Assembly: GCA_921293015.1 (NCBI GenBank) | Contig: OV121096.1 | Location: forward strand, 26,547,729-26,611,728 | Origin: Phorcus lineatus | Taxonomy: Eukaryota; Mollusca; Gastropoda; Trochida; Trochidae | Reading direction: 5' to 3' | DNA length: 64,000 bases | In this document: positions 28,749-55,395 of the stretch, piece after piece | Numbering within the stretch: the stretch's first letter is position 1 | How the letters are laid out: the number at the start of each line of letters is the position of its first letter | Made by a program: the position numbers and the translations under genes | Notes under the pieces: model-generated | The model's input: only the letters and a program-made list of their open reading frames with translations | Told to the model about the DNA's origin: nothing | Database searches by the model: none

Positions 28749-28754
28749 TTTATT
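28749..28754 (-). terminator. Candidate proximal polyadenylation signal AATAAA
   Basis: The minus strand reads AAAAATAAATTG about 100 nt past the stop codon at 28853-28855. It is the first canonical hexamer after the gene. Transcript data would decide between this site and 28553-28558. Confidence 0.4.
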
Positions 28755-28852: not shown

Positions 28853-29385
28853 TTACAACATTCGTCCGATTCTTGGAATTGGCACTGCTCTTTCATTCGA
28901 AAACCGTCCAATTCTAGGAAGAGCAACCGCTCTGGCTTCTTTCTGAATCTCCTTCAGCTTCTCGGAGAGTCTCGTGAACTGCGAGAGGCTAGAACGCCGG
29001 AAGCGTCCTCCTCTTGGTGCTGGGCGCAGATGCGGAAATGCACCTTCCTCGGATCGACGATATATTTTCTCAGTGTTATCTTCCCCCAAGCTCTTCTCGT
29101 ATGCTGTCTGATAATCTAAGTCTTTACCGTATCTCGGCAACGGAATTTGACGGCTTGATAACGTTTTAGACTCGTCCGCCAAGGTTGCAAGAAGGTATCG
29201 CTGCTCTTCCGGTGTCAGCTCACTCTCCATCCGGCCCAGACGCATCATGGGAAATCCTCTCTTTCCCAACCGCAGCATTTGCAGGCCACGACCTAACCGG
29301 AACATGCTCCAACCGCTACGTCGTACACGCGCATGATCTGAATCAGCCTCGCTTTCGTCTTGAGTTTCAGCGGCGATGCAGCTTC
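28853..29385 (-). CDS. Myomodulin-type neuropeptide precursor (MMG2-like), exon 2
   Basis: This exon encodes residues 18-194 of a secreted precursor cut into small amidated peptides for neuromuscular and central signalling. It starts after a TTATTTTACAG acceptor, in phase 1, matching exon 1. After an acidic spacer and RR (39-40) come SGWSMFRLGR, GLQMLRLGKR and GFPMMRLGR. These give the FRL, LRL and MRL amides typical of myomodulin; Aplysia myomodulin has the same MLRL-amide ending. Then QIPLPRYGK (97-105) predicts a PRY amide. AVALPRIGR (170-178) and AVPIPRIGR (184-192) predict two PRI amides. Spacers include an acidic stretch and a helix-like basic stretch (149-169). The stop follows MRLs and PRIs with MetLeu. 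Cleavage is at RR, KR and single R, with G as amide donor. Base composition is clearly richer in GC than the flanks. Family assignment is firm; the MMG2 subfamily label is inference. Confidence 0.92.
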
Positions 29386-31363
29386 CTGTAAAATAATGTT
29401 AGTTATTGAATATACAGATATGATCTAAAGGATGATATAGAAGAGAATGATATCAGTTGTTATTCTCTAAACATCATCTTTACTTCTATATACATTTCTT
29501 CCACCCACTGTTGGGCATTTATGTTAGTCAACGTATAAAAACACAGAAATCTATGAGATAGTTTTGTAGTAAATGTACACAAAGGGCTATCACCATTTTG
29601 AGGTTACCTGTGTATCTCGTGAAAGGTGAAACTGATATGCTAGTTCTAACAAAATTGACATATTAAAAACATATAGTAGTAAAATACACGAAAAATAAGA
29701 CTGATTATTGTTGTTTTGCCACGCTCGTTTAAAATAACTCATTACTGTGAATAAATTGACTCCTCTTTTTTAAATACAAAACAACAAATATGAGATGATA
29801 ATCGATAGGCATTTTGGTTCACGAAATCTTTGTTTTAATCGTGCGTATATCAGTCCGTATGTTACGTTCTGAGTAGAAAAAAATCCTGTTGTTATCATAG
29901 GTATTAATTAGTTTTGAATTTCATGTAATTTGGTATACATCACAAAGAGACAAAAGAGTACATATATTTGGACTTTCATGTGTTCAAGTGGGTTTTCAGA
30001 ATATAGGAAGAATTGATGTTGCGATTCTTTGTCCAAAGTGTATAATCACATAAAAACAGGACTAATACGTGAAACTTACACTTAATAAACATTGCGGTCA
30101 CGTATCATTTTACATTTATTCAATAATTTGTTTAATTGAATGTACAAAAATACATTTCTGCCCAAATATAGTATAGCATCATTGAGCTATTTACGTTTTG
30201 GTGTTTCTAACCATGAAAGATAACGTAGATGATTGATTATATACTTTATAAACCATATCAAGACAAAACCCTAAACGTGAAATAAACATACAATAAGCCT
30301 GATTGGAGTAAACGTAAGATAATTCAGATTGATCAATGTTTTTGTATTACACTAACCTCATTTTGACCAGTGAAGTGGTCTTTTCAAGAAGATTAAGTAC
30401 AACTATTTATTTTGTAAAAGAAAACCATGTTATAATGCGATAAATGCCTATAGAAAAAGCATGCGAATCAACCATTTCATTCATGAGTATGGAACACAAG
30501 ATCAAATCGATAGAATCTTAAAGATGTTTTTACACATCATCCTCAGATTTATCATCACGACAGCAGCATTCCTAAACATTCCATTTTCTCCAACTTTCAC
30601 ATCTTAGCGCAAATAACATGTAATAAGTGATGTCTACGAGGCACTATAGCATAGAGACAACGAAGCAGATAAAAGTAAGTTTTCATTTCACAATTGATGA
30701 TTGAAGTTTTGGCAGTGCGTTAAATTGACAAAAGGTAAGGATTTTGTACAACTATGTTATTAATTCTTATTTTTGAAATATCTAATACGTGATTGCATTA
30801 TATAAGTGATAAGTTATATACTACACATGAATTTTCTTTCTCGTTAAGTCGATAGGGAAAATGTTAATTAAATTCAAGTAAATGAGAATTATAAGAAATG
30901 AAATAATATAGATAATGTAGTAATTATCTACTAGTAGTATATGAAATATGAGAATACAATATCAATACTTCTATTAAATATTGCAAATTGACCTGGAAAT
31001 CCCGTTATAAATTTGAGAAAGATTTTTTACTTTGGTGATTTCTTTGATAAATTCCCTCTGTTGGCGTTGAAACGAAACCCTAATTCCATGATAGTTGTAC
31101 CAGAGGATGAACAAACTTTCGGGATGCAACTCCCAGTATATCATTCAAGTTCAGTAAGGTGGTTCATTTATTTTCATTTAGCTACATTACCATTAATAAT
31201 AAGGTTACCTGTTAGTTGAAATATGAAATCATTCACGAAAACTCTCTATACAAATTATTATCGTTGCAAATACTTCCATTTTAGTGTTCAAGTCATTGAT
31301 AACCGGCTCATAAGCCTGCGGATCGAAGCATGGCATGGAATTGGATTCGATTGATTTGAATAA

Positions 31364-31720
31364 TCACAAACGACCAGCATTGACTTGAAATGGCCAGGAA
31401 TTAGGCGCAGGACTGTAAGCCCATTTCACGACATGTATCCCATGGATTTCCGCCTGTTTAGTTAATAAAGCGAGCTCGTTGATCCAATATGTACCCTTTG
31501 TAACGCGGCATTTAACGGCCTGTCGAAAAATTGACTTAGTAATGTCACCAATTACGACCAAAGCTTGAGCGATGAGACTAGAATCGATCTTAACTTGCAA
31601 TATCGGGTTACTAAGTAACATATAAAGCATGTTGCTTAAATGACACATGGCAAAATCAGGAAGAAATAAGTGGATTCCAAATCTGGATAATAAACTCTTG
31701 AGATTATCTAAAATTAACAT
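31364..31720 (-). other. Unidentified 118-codon open frame inside intron 1
   Basis: The frame begins MLILDNLKSLLSRFGIHLF and ends HVVKWAYSPAPNSWPFQVNA plus three residues before its stop. It has a protein-like composition with Trp, Pro and Cys, more so than other frames of similar length here. An AG acceptor-like site (TTAATTTTAG) lies just inside the start, and no good donor is visible at the end. It could be a fragment of an old transposable element, a nested gene exon, or chance in AT-rich DNA. It is not needed to join exons 1 and 2, which already match in phase. I do not recognise the family. Confidence 0.25.
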
Positions 31721-32398
31721 GTTTCTAATAAAGACACATTCTAGCCTCCCATATCATTTTACTAAGTAACCTTGAGCACATGCTAAGATAAGAGAGCAGC
31801 AACTATGTGAAGTATGGATTTGGAATATCAACTCATAAGATTATCTAATGATAACGGTCTCTGGTTGAATTTGAGGGAAGGCAACACCACAGATTTGAAG
31901 TTACCATATTGTTATTTAATGAAATATATTTCTCATGAAAGTTAAGGAATGTACAATGAGAATATCAATCAATCCTGCTCGATCAGCATATTTGAATTCG
32001 CAGAGCTCCTCCCAAAACCCTGGTCCCCTTTAGGCAAATGCCATGTGTTCAATGAAGTTATTCAATGGTTTCATTGTCTCAAGGCCATTTGACCAATAAT
32101 ACAAAACGATGAATATATATCATACTTGCAAATAAACACACACGCGTATTAAACGATTTCTCCTCGTACACGAAACACGTCATATAAGAATTGTCCAATC
32201 ATGACAACATAACCATTAGATACCATTGATACTAAAGACCATTAAATTGTTCTTGTGCCTCATTTTGCTATGTCTATAACCAGCCATTGAAACAACTTCC
32301 ATCTAGCAAAGGCGGTAAACCTGAATTCAAGCTTCAACCTTTTTGCATAACGGAAGAGATATAGATTCGTTTTCATGTCTAATGAAGAAGATTATTAT

Positions 32399-32425
32399 AC
32401 GAGGGTTGTCCCATAAATAGGTCGC
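32399..32425 (+). repeat. Solo mariner-type terminal repeat (candidate)
   Basis: TA followed by CGAGGGTTGTCCCATAAATA resembles the terminal inverted repeats of mariner elements, which insert at TA. I found no matching opposite end nearby, so it would be a remnant. Similarity is from memory. Confidence 0.35.
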
Positions 32426-34404
32426 CTCAAGTAGAAAATGCAGGTGTTAAATATATAATTTTGCTCGTAGCATCGTGAAACCTTTAGGAGATTGGTTCTG
32501 TTATATGTCAGTAGCATGATCTCTATTTTTGACCTATTATAGTGATACCATCAAAAAATAAATATGTAACAATGTTTTTGCAACATACTATTCTAGTAAG
32601 TAATAAAGCTAATGATATTGGTAGTTCACTGAAATGCATTGCAGACGTTGATGCACATTTGCCCGAGATAAAACTACATCCACCTATTACCCCTTAATAT
32701 CTACTTCAACAGCTCCTTGGCGAGATACTTACTATCAAGTTAACATAAATGTATCAAAAGGTCTATCCTTATTGTATTGTTTCACTTTATGAAACACGAT
32801 GGCAAAGGTTCATATTCAATACTGAATATCTCAAAGATGGAAAGGAGGTGATACTTATCATTTTATGTTAAATTTTACAGATACCACTGAAAGACTACCG
32901 TATCCATGAGCATACAAACCAGATGTAAAACTGTGTGCCGTAACTCTGCTAAAGATTACTTTAAATGATATGAAAACTTGAACAAAGAGAACGTAATCAG
33001 GCTGACTTCTTATAAGACACCTTTCAGACAATAATTCTTTGTTCGGAGACAAGACAAATAAATATTAAAATAATCCAAGAAACTGCTGATTAGAAAATAA
33101 AAAGAATTATTGCTGACCCTTATCATATCCCCGTTAAAAAAATTAAACCATTAGATAGACATTGTCTTTAAAAGAAAATGTCACATAGAATGTCGAAAAC
33201 AGATGCTGGAAACGGGGACTTACTGTTTATCTTATGTAAGAATTGTCAATCTACTAGTTTCGACACGTTCATAACGCCAAACTTGACCTGAGGGATTCCT
33301 TTGTTAAATATTTGTATTATAACAGTAATTAACTTCATGCAGAATTTTGAAGTTTATGAATAGATAATACCAAACACATGTCGGAAAATTATGGTTTAAT
33401 ATATCTGATAACAACACACTCTATCATTTTCACGTTCAAATAATCATATGGTAAAATAACATAAAGGAATTTGCACACAGTGTGTCAGATCAACACGATT
33501 TCAATATTTCCTATTATATAACACTTCATTCTATGTTTCACTGTACATTGACAAAGCTAAATCTCATGAGGCCATTTAGTTCATAGCACGCAAGGACAAA
33601 TGATTTAACACTTCCAGGGGGAAATGAAGAAGATAATCCCGTAATACCATAACACTGAATGGCTGTAACGATTTGTTGGGGAAACGTTAATGTTCCCGTG
33701 TTGGTAAATGAGGCATTGTCGTTTTTCAGGATGTCTAGATGGAAATGTTACATTTACAGTTTGTTAATGATCTCTTTGGGAAATTTATAGGAGTAAAGCC
33801 TGTAAATAGTTTATAGAAGTCGTGTCCATAACTACGTATACATATCCTTGCAGGGTTTTTTCGTTTTGGATGCTAGTAAGAAATATTTTACATGCCAGGT
33901 TTAGTCATGTGATGAATTAGGATTGAAAAGCCTTCGTTTATAGGAACATATAATTGGAATACATATGCTATTATGATAAAGATAGACATATGTTTGTGTA
34001 ATTTAAAAATATGATTTTTATCAGAAGATGTTCATGTTTACAGAACATAATATGCTACAAATATCATGATTAAACCAACCATACTGCATATGATATATAG
34101 TATATATCTTATATTGATTGTAATGAAAGCTTTCTATTCATAAGATAAGATTTGAAGAAAACTTTTTCATACATTCTTGTAATGAATGAATACCATACGA
34201 CCGTAAGGCAAACTACTCTATCATTCAACGTTTTTGTTCCTGCGGTTAGGTAATACTTCGAATTCCAAGGTAATATTTTTATGTTCAAGGAAAATCAATT
34301 TTGAATTATTCTAGATATGCATTGTTCTCAAACCAAGAAATTATGTCAAATATGTTACCTACACCAATTTTTTTCATTAAATAAATGTATGTATATGTTC
34401 ATAC

Positions 34405-34585
34405 TAAAATTACTGACCGGGGATGAGACTCAGTTGGTTCGATTCCTATTCGAATCATACCAACAGACGTTAAACGATTGGAGTTGATGCTTCCTTGCTT
34501 GGCACTCAGCATTATAAGGATAGGACATCTCTTTAACTCGCGCTGCAGTATGGCTGCCGGTTGCCCAGAGCAAAAAATCAAATAT
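34405..34585 (+). repeat. SINE-like repeat with GGTTCGATTCC box
   Basis: GATGAGACTCAGTTGGTTCG and ATTCC contain a pol III B-box-like GGTTCGATTCC. These are followed by GACGTTAAACGATTGGAG, a TTCCTTGCTTGGCACTCAGC block and CTGCAGTATGGCTGCCGG. This block order resembles, from memory, a repeat common in marine invertebrate genomes. It is far less AT-rich than its surroundings. Frame 34399-34581 on the other strand is a by-product. Confidence 0.45.
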
Positions 34586-37500
34586 CCTAATTACGATGTC
34601 ACTAGGCTATCAAAGGGTTATTATTTATCAATATGAAGCATCGCTTGATTTAGCAATAGCATAGACGATATCATAAAATAATTTTATAACATATCGGAAA
34701 TGGCATATTATGTGCAAGACACTGGCGCTACTAAGTTGTGTTTTCCCGAGTGAAAGTGATTTGTACATAAAAGCATTTTTATGACTTTCTTTTTAGGTGT
34801 TAATAACGTATCCATTGTGCTTGTGTAAAAGTGTTTAATAAAATACCACATTAAGTATTTAATCTCACGTGTTTTTTCAAATTATTATAACGAAACTTTC
34901 GATTAAAGTTTCACTACTGACAGTGTTTCACATTTGGAATCCTAATTAGAATCAAATAAATTCGATATAACTTTTTGTAAATGTGTGTTTTGTATTTTTT
35001 TACTATCTCATGTCTTGATATTGAGTACAAGTAGCTATCATGAAATCATATCCTTTAACATTGATAAGGTTAACCTACTATGATATCAACAAGACATGAC
35101 TTAAGTCTCCTGATATCAATTTGGTCAGTGTCTGCATTTTTTGGCAAAACATTCACATTAACACAAGCAAAAGGGCTGGGGCGCAATTATTTAGAATACA
35201 TGTTAAATACATGTCATTCGTCCAGTCTTCGTTAATCCAATTTCATTAAATTTGATGCATTTATACTGAATGATTGAAAGGAGCAATGACGACAGCTTAA
35301 CGAAATGGACACGACTGAAGCATTATTGCAGAGACCTTTCTGCTATTCAATTAACAACACTTTTCGTGCATTAAAATCGCTCTCAGAGACTTGCTATTTC
35401 TGATATTGCCGGACATCTCAATGATGGACAATCTGGCAGTTACCGACATCGGCGTCAGGGTTCTTAAGAAGAAATCCAAGAATCTGATTCCGGATGTGAC
35501 GTCATTGTCTGACCTTTACCTTTACACATAAATATATCCATAAAAAGTTTTTTTCATTTAAAACTTAGTCCTACTTACCAATTGCTTCTAATATTTTGTT
35601 TTGTTTCACCAAATGGATTTGTTTTCATATTGTCAAATAAATAAGATAAGCATACAATTTTTTTTTCCAAACCCATCGACATAGAGATAATGATATTCCA
35701 TTGACCATAACACTCATAAAACTGCAACTTTATTCAGTAGCGCTCGATTGATAAAGGACCTCCAATTTGAAGTAAATAGTCCATAAGCAACTTAACTTAG
35801 CAACCATTGCAACATTCAAGAGCAGGCTATTTAATATCATTGACTCCATTTACCAGCCCTCCTCCTCCGCCCCAATAACTGTGATGCGTCAATGAGCACC
35901 TTTGAGATGGATGATAGACACTATAGAAATTAATTATTACCATTATTAACATAGATATTCATTTATCATTGATTAAAGAATAGAGAACATTATAACGAAT
36001 TTGAAATTATTATTTACGAAAATGATTATATTATCGTATCCAAACATCCATAAAATGTTTTTGTTTATGTTTAACAAAATAAAAAGCATGTTACGATAGA
36101 TAACTTAATAAATGATTTGATGATAAAAAAAATCTATAGCTTATATACATGTACATAATAATAAGCAATATATGCACCTGTTTTGCTCCAGGCGTTTGGT
36201 GATTGACAATCCAAGCTTTAAATCAACTTTTAAAAACAGCTTAACTTCTGGTTAAAGAAAGTAATCGCTTTTTGAACTGCTATGAAGAAAGATGACTAAT
36301 GACGATGATGACAGTAACATCGCACTCGAAATTATTTTTGTCGATGTTCAAGCACCAATCTTGTAGAAACAAGAATATTATGCTACTTCTGCAAAGTCAC
36401 GTGCGACATAGATAAACACTTACAAACCTCTAAAACTTACGCGTCAAAAGCCTGACCATTCACTGAAAATCGAGGGGGTGAATCCATGGAAGATTCTTGG
36501 AAAGAATCGACTTACTTTCTGCGTTTTAATTGGCAATTTATCTTTAAAATACAGCAAACGGAAACATTGCACAAGACGAGAAAATTATATTAAGCTATTT
36601 TAGAAAATGTATCTTATTTCGTAATTTAATCTTACGAAATTCCAACTCACTTTTAGGGTATGTGTATAATTTTAGAAAAGTAAACGACAATAAATTACAA
36701 AGTTACTGAAATGGATTCTCTTCGATCTTGAAAAACGTGTTACCAAAATATTCATTTAATATTTGTTGATTGAAATATAATCAGTAATGAACAACATTCA
36801 TATTTTTCACGATAGTTTTAGACCAATTTCTCAAACTTAACAAATTAGATCCAAAATCGTTGCAAACTGTTCAGTTGAACATTCCCTTAATCGAATGAAA
36901 CCAATTGGCAACGTCTGGCGTCAAATTAACGTCATCGTAATGGAGTTGTTAATGTTGAAAACATTATATCCTTATTGCCTAACATCTTTTCTTATCATAT
37001 TAAGATTATTCTTGTACCTCCTGGAAATTGATTGGTTCAATGACGACTGAAAACCTAATTAGGACCGTAAACTGACACTTACAGTTTGTATAACGTTGAT
37101 AATTTCTCTCAAGTATTCAAGGTAATGACATATGTGATCCATACCACTCTCTGAGTATGACATAGAAGATCTTTTTAGATATTTTTTGTTTATTTGGTTG
37201 AAAGGTGGGCTTAGTACTATGAATGTCATACATGTCATTCCTATTTGATAACCTTATTCCCTTATTCTTATTGCCTTCTCATGATAAAACCTTTCTTAAT
37301 TCTTCTTATTTCGAACATTTTGTAAATTACCCCGAATCAAATTTTCCTCAAACTTTTATTTACATGGTTCCATTATTCAATTTCATTTTTATCATTATAT
37401 TTTTTTATTCATTAGTCGTTTATTATTTTTCTTCACAAAACAAAACGTTTTATTCTTCTTATTCCGAATTATGTCTCATTATCACTATCATCTTTTCACT

Positions 37501-39592
37501 TCAACTTTAATTTATTGATTCTTTCTCCCACTTTATTTTTTGTATCATTTATGCATGAATCCCTTTTATTTTAAAATGTAAGTTTATTACACTTAATCGC
37601 TTTATTCCATAGCACAACCGTATTACTTTACCATTATCAAGTCTTCTCTTGAATAAATATGTTTAAATCAAATCAAGTCATCAGTAGTGACAGACACAAG
37701 GGTAATACTTATGGGATACAGTCTCTCTTATAATGTTTCAATCACAACAGTGAGTGCATTTAGATAGACATAAACATAAACCAACTGAAATATCATTATG
37801 ATAGAACTAAAGAAAATAATCCCTTATCAGAGAGCTTCCTATAATAAAACCTGAGAAAAGAAAATGTGAGTATTGATAGAATATCAACCTTTACAAATAC
37901 GCTGGAATGAATGACTTTGATTCAATGTTTAAGTTTTTGAAAGAATGACCGTTAATCCTTGTCAAATTGTGTAACTAAAAGCAACCAAATATCATCCATA
38001 TCTAGTCGATAATCCAATAATAATGTATTCATGACATATAACTATATGACAATGCCGATCCAACTCTTTCAGTACGTATTTGAACGACAACCTGCATGGA
38101 AGTTTCATAACAAGGATTACCAGCAACGAAACGAAATGAATGCTGTCAATTAACTGTGAATTTGTCATCTACAGAAACCACTAAACATATAAAAGGTTGA
38201 TAACACGTTTAGTTCATAGATATGGTAATTGCAATGTGCATTTAAGTATTGTTGTTAATAGAATATTAATCATTATCACATGCAGTATTACATAGAGTGA
38301 TGTAGGTCATAATTATCTGTTAAATAGGTAACAGTGTATGAAATAATCGAAGCATTGACAGTAGGATAAATTATTTACTATTAGTTTATAACAGTTTTAT
38401 ACAGCTTAAAAAAGTTTTATGAATCACCCGTACGGCCACTGTAGCACGTTGTAAACAGGAAAATAAAGTAAATAATATCAACTAAAGAAAAACAAATGTA
38501 ATCAATCAATAAAGGGAGTTCTTAAAGGAGTCATTCTCATTATTTTAAAATATAAGTTTTCAGATATATTACGGTAATGTATGTGCAATTAGTGAGTGTT
38601 CACTGTAAGTCTAAACAAAATGTGAGAAGTTGGACGTGAACGAAAAAGTGAAATAAAAAATTGTTACTCCTTTAAAGGGGAAGTAGCGTGTTCTTTGAAA
38701 GATTTATTTTTCCCAAATAAACAGTATTTTATTCCTAACGTATTACCTTCAGAAGGTCAAACATCTCATTCCTCAACCCTAAAATCCGTAATCCGTAAAG
38801 GTAACCAATCATTACGCAAAAAGCCACTGGCGGCCATTTTTGTGTAAATCATTTGTTGTAGTGAATTGGATTCGGATCGTTAAACCATCATGGTTTAAGT
38901 TTTAAAACTGCTTCTTTTTATTGTAAGCATTGCCTTTCAATAGAAAACATTTTTTCGTGAGATAACCATATTCATTAAAAAAATCGTGTTAATGCCTCTT
39001 ATATATTCATAGTTTAAGTAGTCACAACAATCCTTATAAAATAAAAATTATATCATTCAATTCCAAAATTGTAAATTGGTACGTACATAAACCTCTCAAT
39101 AGCACAATTTGAAAAATGAGTGCCCTCGGAAAGTTCAGACATTTTTAATGTGATTGTAAACGGAGTTACTCTAACGGTCTGAGAAATCAAAAAACAAACA
39201 TTTGTTCAACAGATTAGGTTTTACTATATTACCCATATGGGAAGATGGACACAGGGTAATATTTTTCCTGTAAGTCACACGGGAGTTACACATTTTCTTG
39301 GCATTTGATTGGTTGTTGTGAACCAATGAAAAGGAACGTAGTGCCGGGACTATTTCATTCATCTTTCAAACTTGTCCCGACTGGTAATTTGTTTACCCTT
39401 AGACAGAATTTTAACAATGTTTATTTATTCCAAATAGTTGCCAGTCGTCATTTCTCAGATGTGGCGCCACAAACAACACGAAATAAGCCTGCCCCATTGC
39501 ACAAAATCATAGAAATTAGCGATTATTGAATAAGTTCTTCATCACGTTAAACTAACAGTCGCTAAGAAGCGCCTGGTCCCGTTCTATCGTAG

Positions 39593-39644
39593 TGACGTCA
39601 TAGACACGAGCGGCTATGACGTCACAGTGTCATCAGTTACGTCA
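39593..39644. promoter_or_regulatory. Cluster of three CRE-like sites in the neuropeptide intron
   Basis: Perfect TGACGTCA palindromes lie at 39593-39600 and 39617-39624, with TTACGTCA at 39637-39644. The site spacing is 24 and 20 bp, about two helical turns each. TGACGTCA is the binding site of CREB/ATF proteins, which act on many neuropeptide genes. The location, about 2.4 kb into intron 1 of the myomodulin-type gene, would suit an intronic enhancer. Function is inferred from the motif only; a repeat origin is possible, because a cluster of TGACGTA-type sites also lies in the element at 54634. Confidence 0.4.
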
Positions 39645-39957
39645 CAAGTTCAGCCGTCTTGTAGTATAACCATAGGGCGTCGCTGACCTCTTCAAATTAA
39701 CACAAAACTGTTAAATGTAACTAGTTTGATTGACGGTTATGAAAACAGGATTAAACGTTCGACAACAACTACATTTAGCTATTATTTTTAAAAAAAAATT
39801 CACAAATTACAATTTAGCCGTGCGTAGGTAAGTGTCAAGCAAAACCACAGCACTCGCGTATGAATTTGGAAATTCGCAACCCTAATCCTATATAGAAGAA
39901 CGATTATTTCTATCATATTCGAGTTTTGACATTTTAAAAAACATATAGGTAATATAA

Positions 39958-40106
39958 ACAATAACCAACTCGTGACGGGAATGACAGATTATCTTTCCCT
40001 CGTTATATTAATTGTGTAATTCTCTCGCCAAGGCTCGAGAATTACGAAATTAATATAACTCGGGAAAGATAATCTGTCATTCCCCGTCACTCGTTAATTA
40101 TTGTCT
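39958..40106. mobile_element. Foldback element with about 65-bp arms
   Basis: The left arm, from ACAATAACCAACTCGTGACG through GAATGACAGATTATCTTTCC to GTAATTCTC, is matched almost base for base by the reverse complement of the right arm. That arm ends TCACTCGTTAATTATTGT. The central spacer is about 10 nt around TCGCCAAGGCTCGA. The high arm identity suggests a fairly young palindromic MITE or maintained structure. No coding capacity. Confidence 0.7.
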
Positions 40107-40913
40107 ATTTAACACTTATCAAAATTTAAATCTAATGAATGTATGAATGAAAAAATGTTAAACAGTACATTTGTGGGAAATGAGTATTTGGCAACGTGTG
40201 CAAATAGAGTGCTTCCTGTTGATCGGGAAACGTTGTCCATATGACGATCAACATGGATGATTAGTCATTTACTGTCGAAGAAATAAAATCATTCCACTCA
40301 CTATTCAAAAATCGATTGTGTTGACCTTAAAGTAAGATCCTGTTTTAAAAATGCCTATACCCTTTCTTTCACAATTATTTATCAAATTGTCGCGTCATCT
40401 CAATGTTATAAATTGGTGCCAGGTGCTCTTGGTAGGCCTTGATCAGTTGCCCACGTGTGTGAATCATAATCGGTGAAAAATCTCAATTACTGAATTGAGA
40501 AAACTTAAACGTCACTTAAGAAAGTACTTAACTCATTCATTTCATTAAATTTTAAGTCATGAGTTGGATTATCATGTATAATTCAATTATTTGTTTAACT
40601 TTATTTCCAAATTTTGAAAGTATACGTAAAGGCCATGAATCACTAAGATTACACATCAAGCTTCACAGGTAAAGCTTATCATAAGAGAATTGTATCTGAG
40701 GGTTTTTGTATTCAGTAACGTGCACGGGATGTATACATATGTAGATTCAATATGTTTATCATTGTTTATATAGTCATGCCAATTGCTTGTTCCATGCTTA
40801 AAACAAAACCTACAAGGAAAATGTTGTTCAGTTTTCAAAGGTATTAATTTTCGTTTATCATGATAATTATAAATCCTCATAATGTCGCAACAATCCATAA
40901 CTGTTTTAAGCTT

Positions 40914-41325
40914 CTAGGAATGGAATTTTTCATACATAATCGCTAAAAGGCTTTTTTCAAAACGATGATTTTATTTAGCGCTTTACAGAAAACAGCATTA
41001 GTTTAAGCAAACTCTAATCGCATACCAATACAGAAGTAAAACCATGTTACAAGTTACTTGCATGTTATAGAATGTTGTAATTGTTTGTAATTAATTATAT
41101 AACGTACTTGCAAATTCCCTCTTAAGAAATCCTTTTAGGTATTGAATTATTCATACATAATCACTAAAAGGCTGTTTTTCAAAACGATGATTTTATTTAC
41201 ATATATGCATTTAGTTCAAGTAAACTGTAATCGCATACCAATATGGACGTAAAACCATGTTACTGGCATGTAATAGAACATGTGTGTAATTAATTATATA
41301 ACATACGTGCAAATTCCTCTTAAGG
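40914..41325. repeat. Tandem duplication, period about 221 bp
   Basis: Two successive copies begin with CATACATAATC, continue with CTAAAAGGC and TTCAAAACGATGATTTTATT, then TCGCATACCAATA and GTAAAACCATGTTAC, and end with GCAAATTCC and CTCTTAAG. The second copy has a deletion of about 30 bp. Non-coding; lies within intron 1 about 0.7 kb downstream of exon 1. Confidence 0.7.
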
Positions 41326-41796
41326 GTAGTTCCGAGGGAATCGGTCCATGCTTTTTAGAATAACATGTATTTGGTTATGAAACCGCCGTGTTCAAACGAA
41401 CAAAATAACTATACGTTCGACCAATATTAACAAGTCTCTTTCTCAAGTCAGCGTAGTGATATCATTCCGAAAGATCATAAAGCAAATTAAGGCTGAAATG
41501 GTTTCAACCTTTTACTGTTTTTACCGGGGTAAAACTGTAATAGATAGTTAAGACGTTATTCAGTAAATACTTGTCAATACATTACTTAAACATTCAACCC
41601 TGAATAGAGGCTGCGTGTACTTGTGTAGGATACTTTATGGAAACTCGAAAACTACTCAATCATTTTAACAAATACCCTTATGGGAAAAGTTATGTTAGCT
41701 AATGGAAAATAATTTAAGCTGTGAAAACGTCTTTCTCCTATTAAAAACTAATATCTATTTCAGAATGTCTACGATTTAACAATGTACTTGAACAGT

Positions 41797-42027
41797 CACT
41801 GACCACATACCTGCATATAGAATAACTATAAGTCCAAACTAAAACCAATGATTCAAGAATATCAAATCTTCAAGTTATGTTTCTTAACGGTACCTGACCA
41901 TATAACTGCATACAGAATTATTAAAGTCCAAGCTAAAACAAATAAATGAAGAATATAAAATCTTCAACGCAAGATTGCTATCAATAACTGACCACATACC
42001 TGCGTATAGAATAACTATAAGTCCAAG
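41797..42027 (-). repeat. Tandem triplication of the exon 1 3' end and splice donor
   Basis: The last 28 nt of exon 1 (42000-42027) and the following donor are repeated at 41906-41932 and 41811-41838, with a period of 94-95 bp. The 41811 copy reads TTGGACTTATAGTTATTC and then TATATGCAG|GTATGTGGTC on the minus strand, keeping a perfect donor. The 41906 copy has lost it (GCAGTTATATGG). Both copies are preceded by a pyrimidine-rich TTTTAG that could act as an acceptor. If the 28-nt unit were spliced in between exons 1 and 2 it would shift the frame; the 27-nt unit would not, but its donor is weak. They may be relics or cassette exons. Confidence 0.7.
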
Positions 42028-42051
42028 CCAATAGTGATGGTCAAGCTGCAT
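42000..42051 (-). CDS. Myomodulin-type neuropeptide precursor, exon 1 (signal peptide)
   Basis: Codes MQLDHHYWLGLIVILYA plus one base of codon 18. The hydrophobic run from Trp8 to Ala17 and the following GSCIAA from exon 2 form a normal secretory signal peptide, with cleavage likely near residues 20-23. The start ATG at 42051-42049 has A at -3 (AGAACCATG). The same frame is open upstream to a GTG, but a eukaryotic start favours this ATG. The donor CAG|GTATGT is consensus and phase 1, exactly what exon 2 (29385) requires, and gives an uninterrupted 194-residue frame. The link between the two exons is inference from phase, strand, signal peptide and absence of any competitor; no transcript is available here. 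Confidence 0.8.

Positions 42052-55364: not shown

Positions 55365-55395
<31 letters not shown>
55365..55395 (+). repeat. Homopolymer of 31 C
   Basis: An uninterrupted run of 31 C residues in an AT-rich genome. Long poly-C can be genuine, but its exact length is prone to sequencing or assembly error. Confidence 0.95.

What the first reader, a model, noticed from the sequence alone, without database searches (positions are those of the whole stretch)
28853..42051. Two-exon myomodulin-type precursor gene split by a 12.6 kb intron
Single-exon reading shows only a 150-codon frame beginning at an internal Met. Joining it to a tiny 52-nt exon more than 12 kb away gives an exact phase-1 match, consensus splice sites and a proper signal peptide, for a 194-residue precursor. 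Automatic annotation could easily miss exon 1 and call the gene incomplete.
Basis: partly seen in the sequence, partly recalled or inferred. Interest (0 to 1): 0.8.

Follow-up and report, generated by a model that had tools for sequence, protein, structure and literature searches.

The report
Snail myomodulin-2 gene, long first intron
This is an ordinary sea-snail gene for a packet of nerve-signalling peptides (myomodulin 2) whose tiny first coding piece lies 12.6 thousand bases from the rest, and its sister gene on the same contig is built the same way.

Summary
Exon 1 (42000-42051, -) plus exon 2 (28853-29385, -) give an uninterrupted 194-residue precursor across a 12,614-nt phase-1 intron. 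Its best relative among 70 hits is Haliotis cracherodii "myomodulin neuropeptides 2-like" (E 5.2e-84, 73% identity, 98% coverage). That protein's N-terminus finds exon 1 as the best place in six frames of the window (score 63, next 34).

More precisely, it is myomodulin gene 2 (Aplysia MMG2 type), with 3 RLamide and 4 PRXamide units.

The long intron is not special. A myomodulin 1 paralogue lies about 214 kb away on the same contig and strand, with a 61-nt coding first exon and a 33,598-nt phase-1 intron, also in a Gly codon.

(ii) MM1 here and in Haliotis encodes one PRXamide, against a published generalisation.

A new member of a known kind. No RNA evidence was available.

The parts
42000..42051 (-). 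Coding exon 1 of myomodulin 2: residues 1-17 and the first base of the Gly codon; most of the signal peptide
   Evidence: Open frame and donor CAG|GTATGT; best place for the Haliotis N-terminus, 12 of 18 residues identical
29386..41999 (-). Phase-1 intron, 12,614 nt
   Evidence: GT donor and TTTTACAG acceptor
28853..29385 (-). Coding exon 2: end of the signal peptide and the whole peptide cargo, stop codon included
28749..28754 (-). AATAAA, candidate polyadenylation signal about 100 nt after the stop
   Evidence: Motif scan; function inferred
41791..42028 (-). Imperfect 94-nt tandem array (2.5 copies) spanning the exon-1 end and the intron start
41811..41838 (-). 28-nt copy of the exon-1 end with TTTTAG before it and GTATGT after it; its inclusion gives a stop after 32 residues
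   Evidence: one search had tested the stretch shifted by one base

Best explanation
This is the myomodulin 2 (MMG2-type) neuropeptide precursor gene of a vetigastropod-like sea snail. A 52-nt coding exon 1 supplies most of the signal peptide. A 12.6-kb phase-1 intron is removed. One large exon then encodes the end of the signal peptide and the whole peptide cargo. After entry into the secretory pathway, prohormone convertases would cut at mono- and dibasic sites and the C-terminal Gly would be turned into an amide. That would release three myomodulin-type RLamides and four PRXamides, expected to act on two different receptor classes (myomodulin receptor and NmU/PRXamide receptor). Shown here: coding model, orthology by sequence, structure of the paralogue. 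Inferred: transcription, processing, receptor targets, taxon (from the best hits).
For: Open spliced frame with GT-AG sites. Haliotis cracherodii MM2 match at E 5.2e-84 that includes the exon-1 part. One of 232 phase-1 ATG-GT combinations fits both donor and hydrophobicity. The linked MM1 paralogue has a 61-nt coding exon 1, a phase-1 intron that also splits a Gly codon at the end of the hydrophobic stretch, and a single cargo exon. Two Patella caerulea models share their last 183 residues exactly, starting at the equivalent Gly, and differ before it. AVALPRIa equals Aplysia MMG2-DPd, and the Deroceras NmU receptors were deorphanised with QPPLPRYa, QPPVPRYa and AVPRPRIa from two myomodulin genes (PMC7749107, passages).
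Against: No transcript was seen, so 5' non-coding exons, alternative first exons and the transcription start are unknown. No signal-peptide predictor was run; only hydrophobicity and homology were used. Exon 1 is short, and one of ten simulated windows gave a probe score of 43, against 63 for exon 1. A copy of the exon-1 end with a good donor lies about 190 nt into the intron and could cause mis-splicing, although its use breaks the frame. Pfam gives no family above its cut-off for exon 2.
Confidence: 0.96

Rival explanations
1. Exon 2 is real, but the true first coding exon lies elsewhere and the 52-nt stretch is a chance match.
For: No RNA evidence; exon 1 is only 52 nt long.
Against: The Haliotis N-terminus scores 63 there, 34 at the next place and at most 43 in ten simulated windows; only this combination fits donor and hydrophobicity.
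Confidence: 0.03
2. A dead or retro-copied gene without function.
For: Repeats lie at the exon-1 boundary.
Against: The frame is open over 194 residues with the cleavage and amidation sites present, 73% identical to Haliotis, and the intron is retained, unlike in a retrocopy.
Confidence: 0.01
3. A myomodulin 1 gene rather than myomodulin 2.
For: It shares the GLQMLRLGKR core with MM1.
Against: Three RLamides against 13 in the own MM1, four PRXamides against one; 299 bits to Haliotis MM2 against 65 bits to Haliotis MM1.
Confidence: 0.01
4. The tandem copy of the exon-1 end is a regulated microexon that switches the peptide output off.
For: Acceptor-like TTTTAG and donor GTATGT flank 28 nt, and inclusion gives a stop after 32 residues.
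Against: The middle copy has lost the GTATGT donor and there is no sign of use or of conservation. Nothing about it was tested in relatives.
Confidence: 0.05

Closest known systems
Haliotis cracherodii 'myomodulin neuropeptides 2-like' (P0001)
   Same: 73% identity over 98% of the query; same order of units (3 RLamide, 4 PRXamide); N-terminus equivalent to exon 1
   Different: Annotated start one Met earlier and six residues longer; its gene structure was not seen
Aplysia MMG2 and Deroceras myomodulin 2
   Same: Myomodulin-type RLamides followed by QxPLPRYa, RPAPRGa (Deroceras) and AVxxPRIa peptides; AVALPRIa identical to Aplysia MMG2-DPd (PMC7749107 passages)
   Different: Three RLamides here, two units in Deroceras; the last peptide is AVPIPRIa instead of AVPRPRIa
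Myomodulin 1 of the same genome (G000:C37:26327856-26362311, -)
   Same: Short signal-peptide exon, large phase-1 intron in a Gly codon, single cargo exon, GLQMLRLGKRG core
   Different: 33.6-kb intron; 13 RLamides and one PRXamide (AVALPRFa)
Single bivalve myomodulin precursor (e.g. Solemya velum P0003)
   Same: Front part aligns with MM2 (RL triplet, PRYa, PAPRPa, PRIa)
   Different: Has a further tail of RLamides after the last PRXamide, as did 11 of 11 named bivalve proteins examined

Membership tests
Molluscan myomodulin 2 (MMG2) precursor | Full-length homology to an annotated myomodulin 2 | tested here: met
   P0001, E 5.2e-84, 98% of the query covered
Molluscan myomodulin 2 (MMG2) precursor | GLQMLRLGKR core and further RLamide units bounded by basic sites | tested here: met
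   GLQMLRLGKR invariant in the 14 aligned sequences; 3 RLamide-type units
Molluscan myomodulin 2 (MMG2) precursor | PRXamide units in the same precursor | tested here: met
   4 units: IPLPRYG, RPAPRGG, VALPRIG, VPIPRIG
Molluscan myomodulin 2 (MMG2) precursor | N-terminal signal peptide | tested here: met
   Hydrophobic 9-mer mean 2.74 and homology to the Haliotis N-terminus; no dedicated predictor was run
Molluscan myomodulin 2 (MMG2) precursor | Expression in ganglia and amidated mature peptides | not testable with these tools
   No RNA or peptide data
Gastropod myomodulin 1 | Long array of near-identical MLRLamide repeats | tested here: not met
   3 RLamides in the window gene, 13 in the own MM1

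The most novel reading that the evidence does not exclude
The gastropod MM1/MM2 pair arose by tandem duplication of one composite precursor like that still found in bivalves, already carrying the phase-1 signal-peptide intron. The copies then decayed in complementary ways: MM2 dropped the RLamide tail, while MM1 dropped the PRYa and PAPRGa units and expanded the tail. Vetigastropods preserve an intermediate state in which MM1 still carries one PRXamide (AVALPR[F/I]a). This would have separated two co-packaged transmitters with different receptors into independently regulated genes.
Probability: 0.5. Interest if true: 0.45.

Novelty: new member of a known kind. Interest (0 to 1): 0.25.

Why it matters
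It is a well-supported gene model for a conserved neuropeptide precursor, and it shows why such genes get called truncated: the signal peptide sits in a tiny far exon, here (12.6 kb) and in MM1 (33.6 kb). The linked MM1 and MM2, the shared intron and the leftover PRXamide in vetigastropod MM1 make a tidy case for studying how a precursor for two kinds of transmitter was split into two genes.

Tried and rejected
Tandem 28-nt copy of the exon-1 end as a microexon: one search tested 41812-41839, which is one base off; one search repeated it with 41811-41838. Both shift the frame and give an early stop, so it was rejected as a productive exon. Reading exon 1 on into the intron runs to a stop at 41884.

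Other genes in the window: Pfam on ten stop-to-stop frames (10 of the 18 listed) gave nothing at E 0.01. Rfam gave no match at gathering score and ARAGORN no tRNA. Pfam on exon 2 gave only matches below cut-off. No structure prediction was made.

Literature: searches. In their listings and in the passages I read of seven papers I saw nothing on the exon-intron structure of a myomodulin 2 gene; most subscription journals are not held. Proekt 2005 (Aplysia MMG2) and Kellett 1996, whose title speaks of the structure of the Lymnaea myomodulin gene, were seen only as references; neither is held.

Rows dropped: of the 104 hits only 18 with organism names were examined for MM1 units (14 gastropod proteins that I class as MM1, some of which bear no myomodulin name, and 4 others); unnamed rows were left out. 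The 11 bivalve proteins are named rows.

Full report
What was checked. The single-exon frame of 150 codons at 28853-29305 (-) starts at an internal Met. The stop-to-stop stretch of the same frame reaches back to 29398, just across a splice acceptor. Joining 42000-42051 to 28853-29385 gives 585 nt, no internal stop, and a 194-residue protein. The donor is CAG|GTATGT and the acceptor TTTTACAG|GAAG. The intron is 12,614 nt and splits a Gly codon after its first base. An AATAAA starts at 28754 (-), about 100 nt after the stop.

Is it more than chance? On the minus strand upstream of exon 2 the window has 800 ATGs and 232 open phase-1 ATG-to-GT combinations of 25-199 nt. Two have a donor with at least 8 of 9 consensus letters, and one of those, the named exon, has a hydrophobic 9-mer of at least 2.74. 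An independent test used residues 2-19 of the annotated Haliotis cracherodii protein as a probe on all six frames. The best place is 42051 (-) with score 63, 12 of 18 residues identical. The second (34) is a decayed tandem copy of the exon-1 end. Ten Markov-1 simulated windows gave best scores of 25 to 43.

What it is. Of 70 database relatives (E up to 10), the best is Haliotis cracherodii 'myomodulin neuropeptides 2-like' (E 5.2e-84, 73% identity, 98% coverage). Hits named myomodulin 2 or 2-like come from Gigantopelta, Patella vulgata, Physella, Littorina, Deroceras and Biomphalaria, and there are bivalve precursors. An alignment of 14 sequences keeps GLQMLRLGKR invariant and the PRYG and PRGG units nearly so. 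The precursor holds three RLamide-type and four PRXamide-type units. AVALPRIa is identical to a peptide of Aplysia MMG2. In the slug Deroceras the NmU receptors were deorphanised with QPPLPRYa, QPPVPRYa and AVPRPRIa from two myomodulin genes (PMC7749107, passages read). A later review of spiralian peptides treats myomodulins, with RLamide/RMamide and PRXamide ends, as orthologues of insect myosuppressin (PMC8557429, passages read).

Genome context. The window is G000:C37:26547729-26611728 of a 958-Mb assembly in 74 contigs. The exon-2 protein matches two places in it: itself and C37:26328468 (-). The second place is a myomodulin 1 cargo exon. I fetched 9,901 plus 20 x 10,000 bases around and upstream of it and scanned them and the window with the Haliotis MM1 N-terminus. 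That gave one strong place, 26362311 (-), score 82, next 37. The MM1 model has a 61-nt coding exon 1, donor CAAG|GTACGT, a 33,598-nt phase-1 intron, exon 2 from 26328652, and 285 residues. Its junction again lies in a Gly codon at the end of the hydrophobic stretch. MM1 and MM2 are in the same orientation, and 214,270 bases separate the MM1 start from the MM2 stop; 12,728 of these were not fetched. A long intron after a tiny signal-peptide exon is therefore shared by both genes and is not a peculiarity of this one.

Annotation. Of the 70 relatives, 13 begin at the equivalent internal Met (P0002, P0014, P0017, P0040, P0045, P0049, P0054, P0056, P0059, P0060, P0062, P0065, P0069). Eleven of the 13 are unnamed rows from the sources labelled lgn or ena, P0002 is an unnamed ncbi row, and P0014 is an annotated Pinctada imbricata protein. 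Lottia P0041 and Patella caerulea MM1 P0094 also lack a convincing signal peptide. Two Patella caerulea models, P0018 and P0023, share their last 183 residues, beginning at the Gly equivalent to the junction, and differ before it. This fits an intron at the same place, with P0023 reading through the acceptor (inference).

Evolutionary reading. All 11 named bivalve proteins that I examined carry PRXamides and, after the last of them, 4 to 8 further RLamide units in one protein. The own MM2 aligns with the front and the own MM1 with the tail, and all share the first RL units. MM1 and MM2 proteins are listed on contigs of the same length in Patella vulgata (75,114,587), Patella caerulea (64,263,413, adjacent locus numbers SNE40_006827 and 006828) and Bradybaena (73,183,519; locus numbers 18564 and 18763/18764). 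Against this, in Haliotis cracherodii they are listed on contigs of different length (61,478,412 and 36,859,700), and Patella caerulea has another MM2 protein on a third contig length. De Oliveira et al. 2019 (PMC6425005, passages read) name gastropod myomodulin-1 as an exception in lacking PRXamides. Here the own MM1 has AVALPRFa and H. cracherodii MM1 has AVALPRIa, while the other 13 of the 14 named gastropod MM1-like proteins that I examined have none. Several of those 14 start late or are partial. The same paper places two myomodulin precursors in the protostome stem, which speaks against a gastropod-level duplication, and I built no tree. I therefore give the split-precursor reading even odds.

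Tandem copies of the exon-1 end. An imperfect 94-nt array (2.5 copies, 41791-42028) repeats the last 28 nt of exon 1 with the adjacent intron. The third copy keeps the donor and has TTTTAG before it, so it looks like a microexon. Including it gives a stop after 32 residues. It is probably a harmless duplication, and whether it is ever spliced is unknown. Its copy number in the genome could not be tested because the search did not complete.

Verdict. The observation and the interpretation hold. The gene is a new member of a well-known family with an ordinary layout. Interest is low to moderate, lifted slightly by the linked paralogue pair and the residual PRXamide in vetigastropod MM1.

Noticed in passing
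G000:C37:26327856-26362311 (-), L002/L003 and L006: Linked myomodulin 1 gene with a 33.6-kb phase-1 intron; it encodes one PRXamide (AVALPRFa), against the published statement that gastropod myomodulin 1 is an exception in lacking them.
   Followed up: yes
window 41791-42028: Imperfect 94-nt tandem array duplicating the exon-1 end and donor; copy 3 forms an acceptor, 28 nt, donor unit that would break the frame.
   Followed up: partly
window 39977-40084: Inverted repeat of 53-nt arms, 89% complementary, 2 nt apart, inside the intron; possibly a small transposon remnant (the reading is a guess).
   Followed up: no
window 40911-41317: Direct duplication at a spacing of about 199-222 nt inside the intron, seen as four repeat families 85-100% alike.
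   Followed up: no
G000:C37 near 26526510 (+) and 26490981 (-): Between the two myomodulin genes: a frame with a THAP domain (E 2.4e-15) and one with a QRICH1 domain (E 3e-11).
   Followed up: no
P0018 and P0023 (Patella caerulea): Two myomodulin 2 proteins with the last 183 residues identical, on contigs of different length: a recent copy, a haplotype or an assembly effect.
   Followed up: partly
window 55365-55395: Run of 31 C.
   Followed up: no
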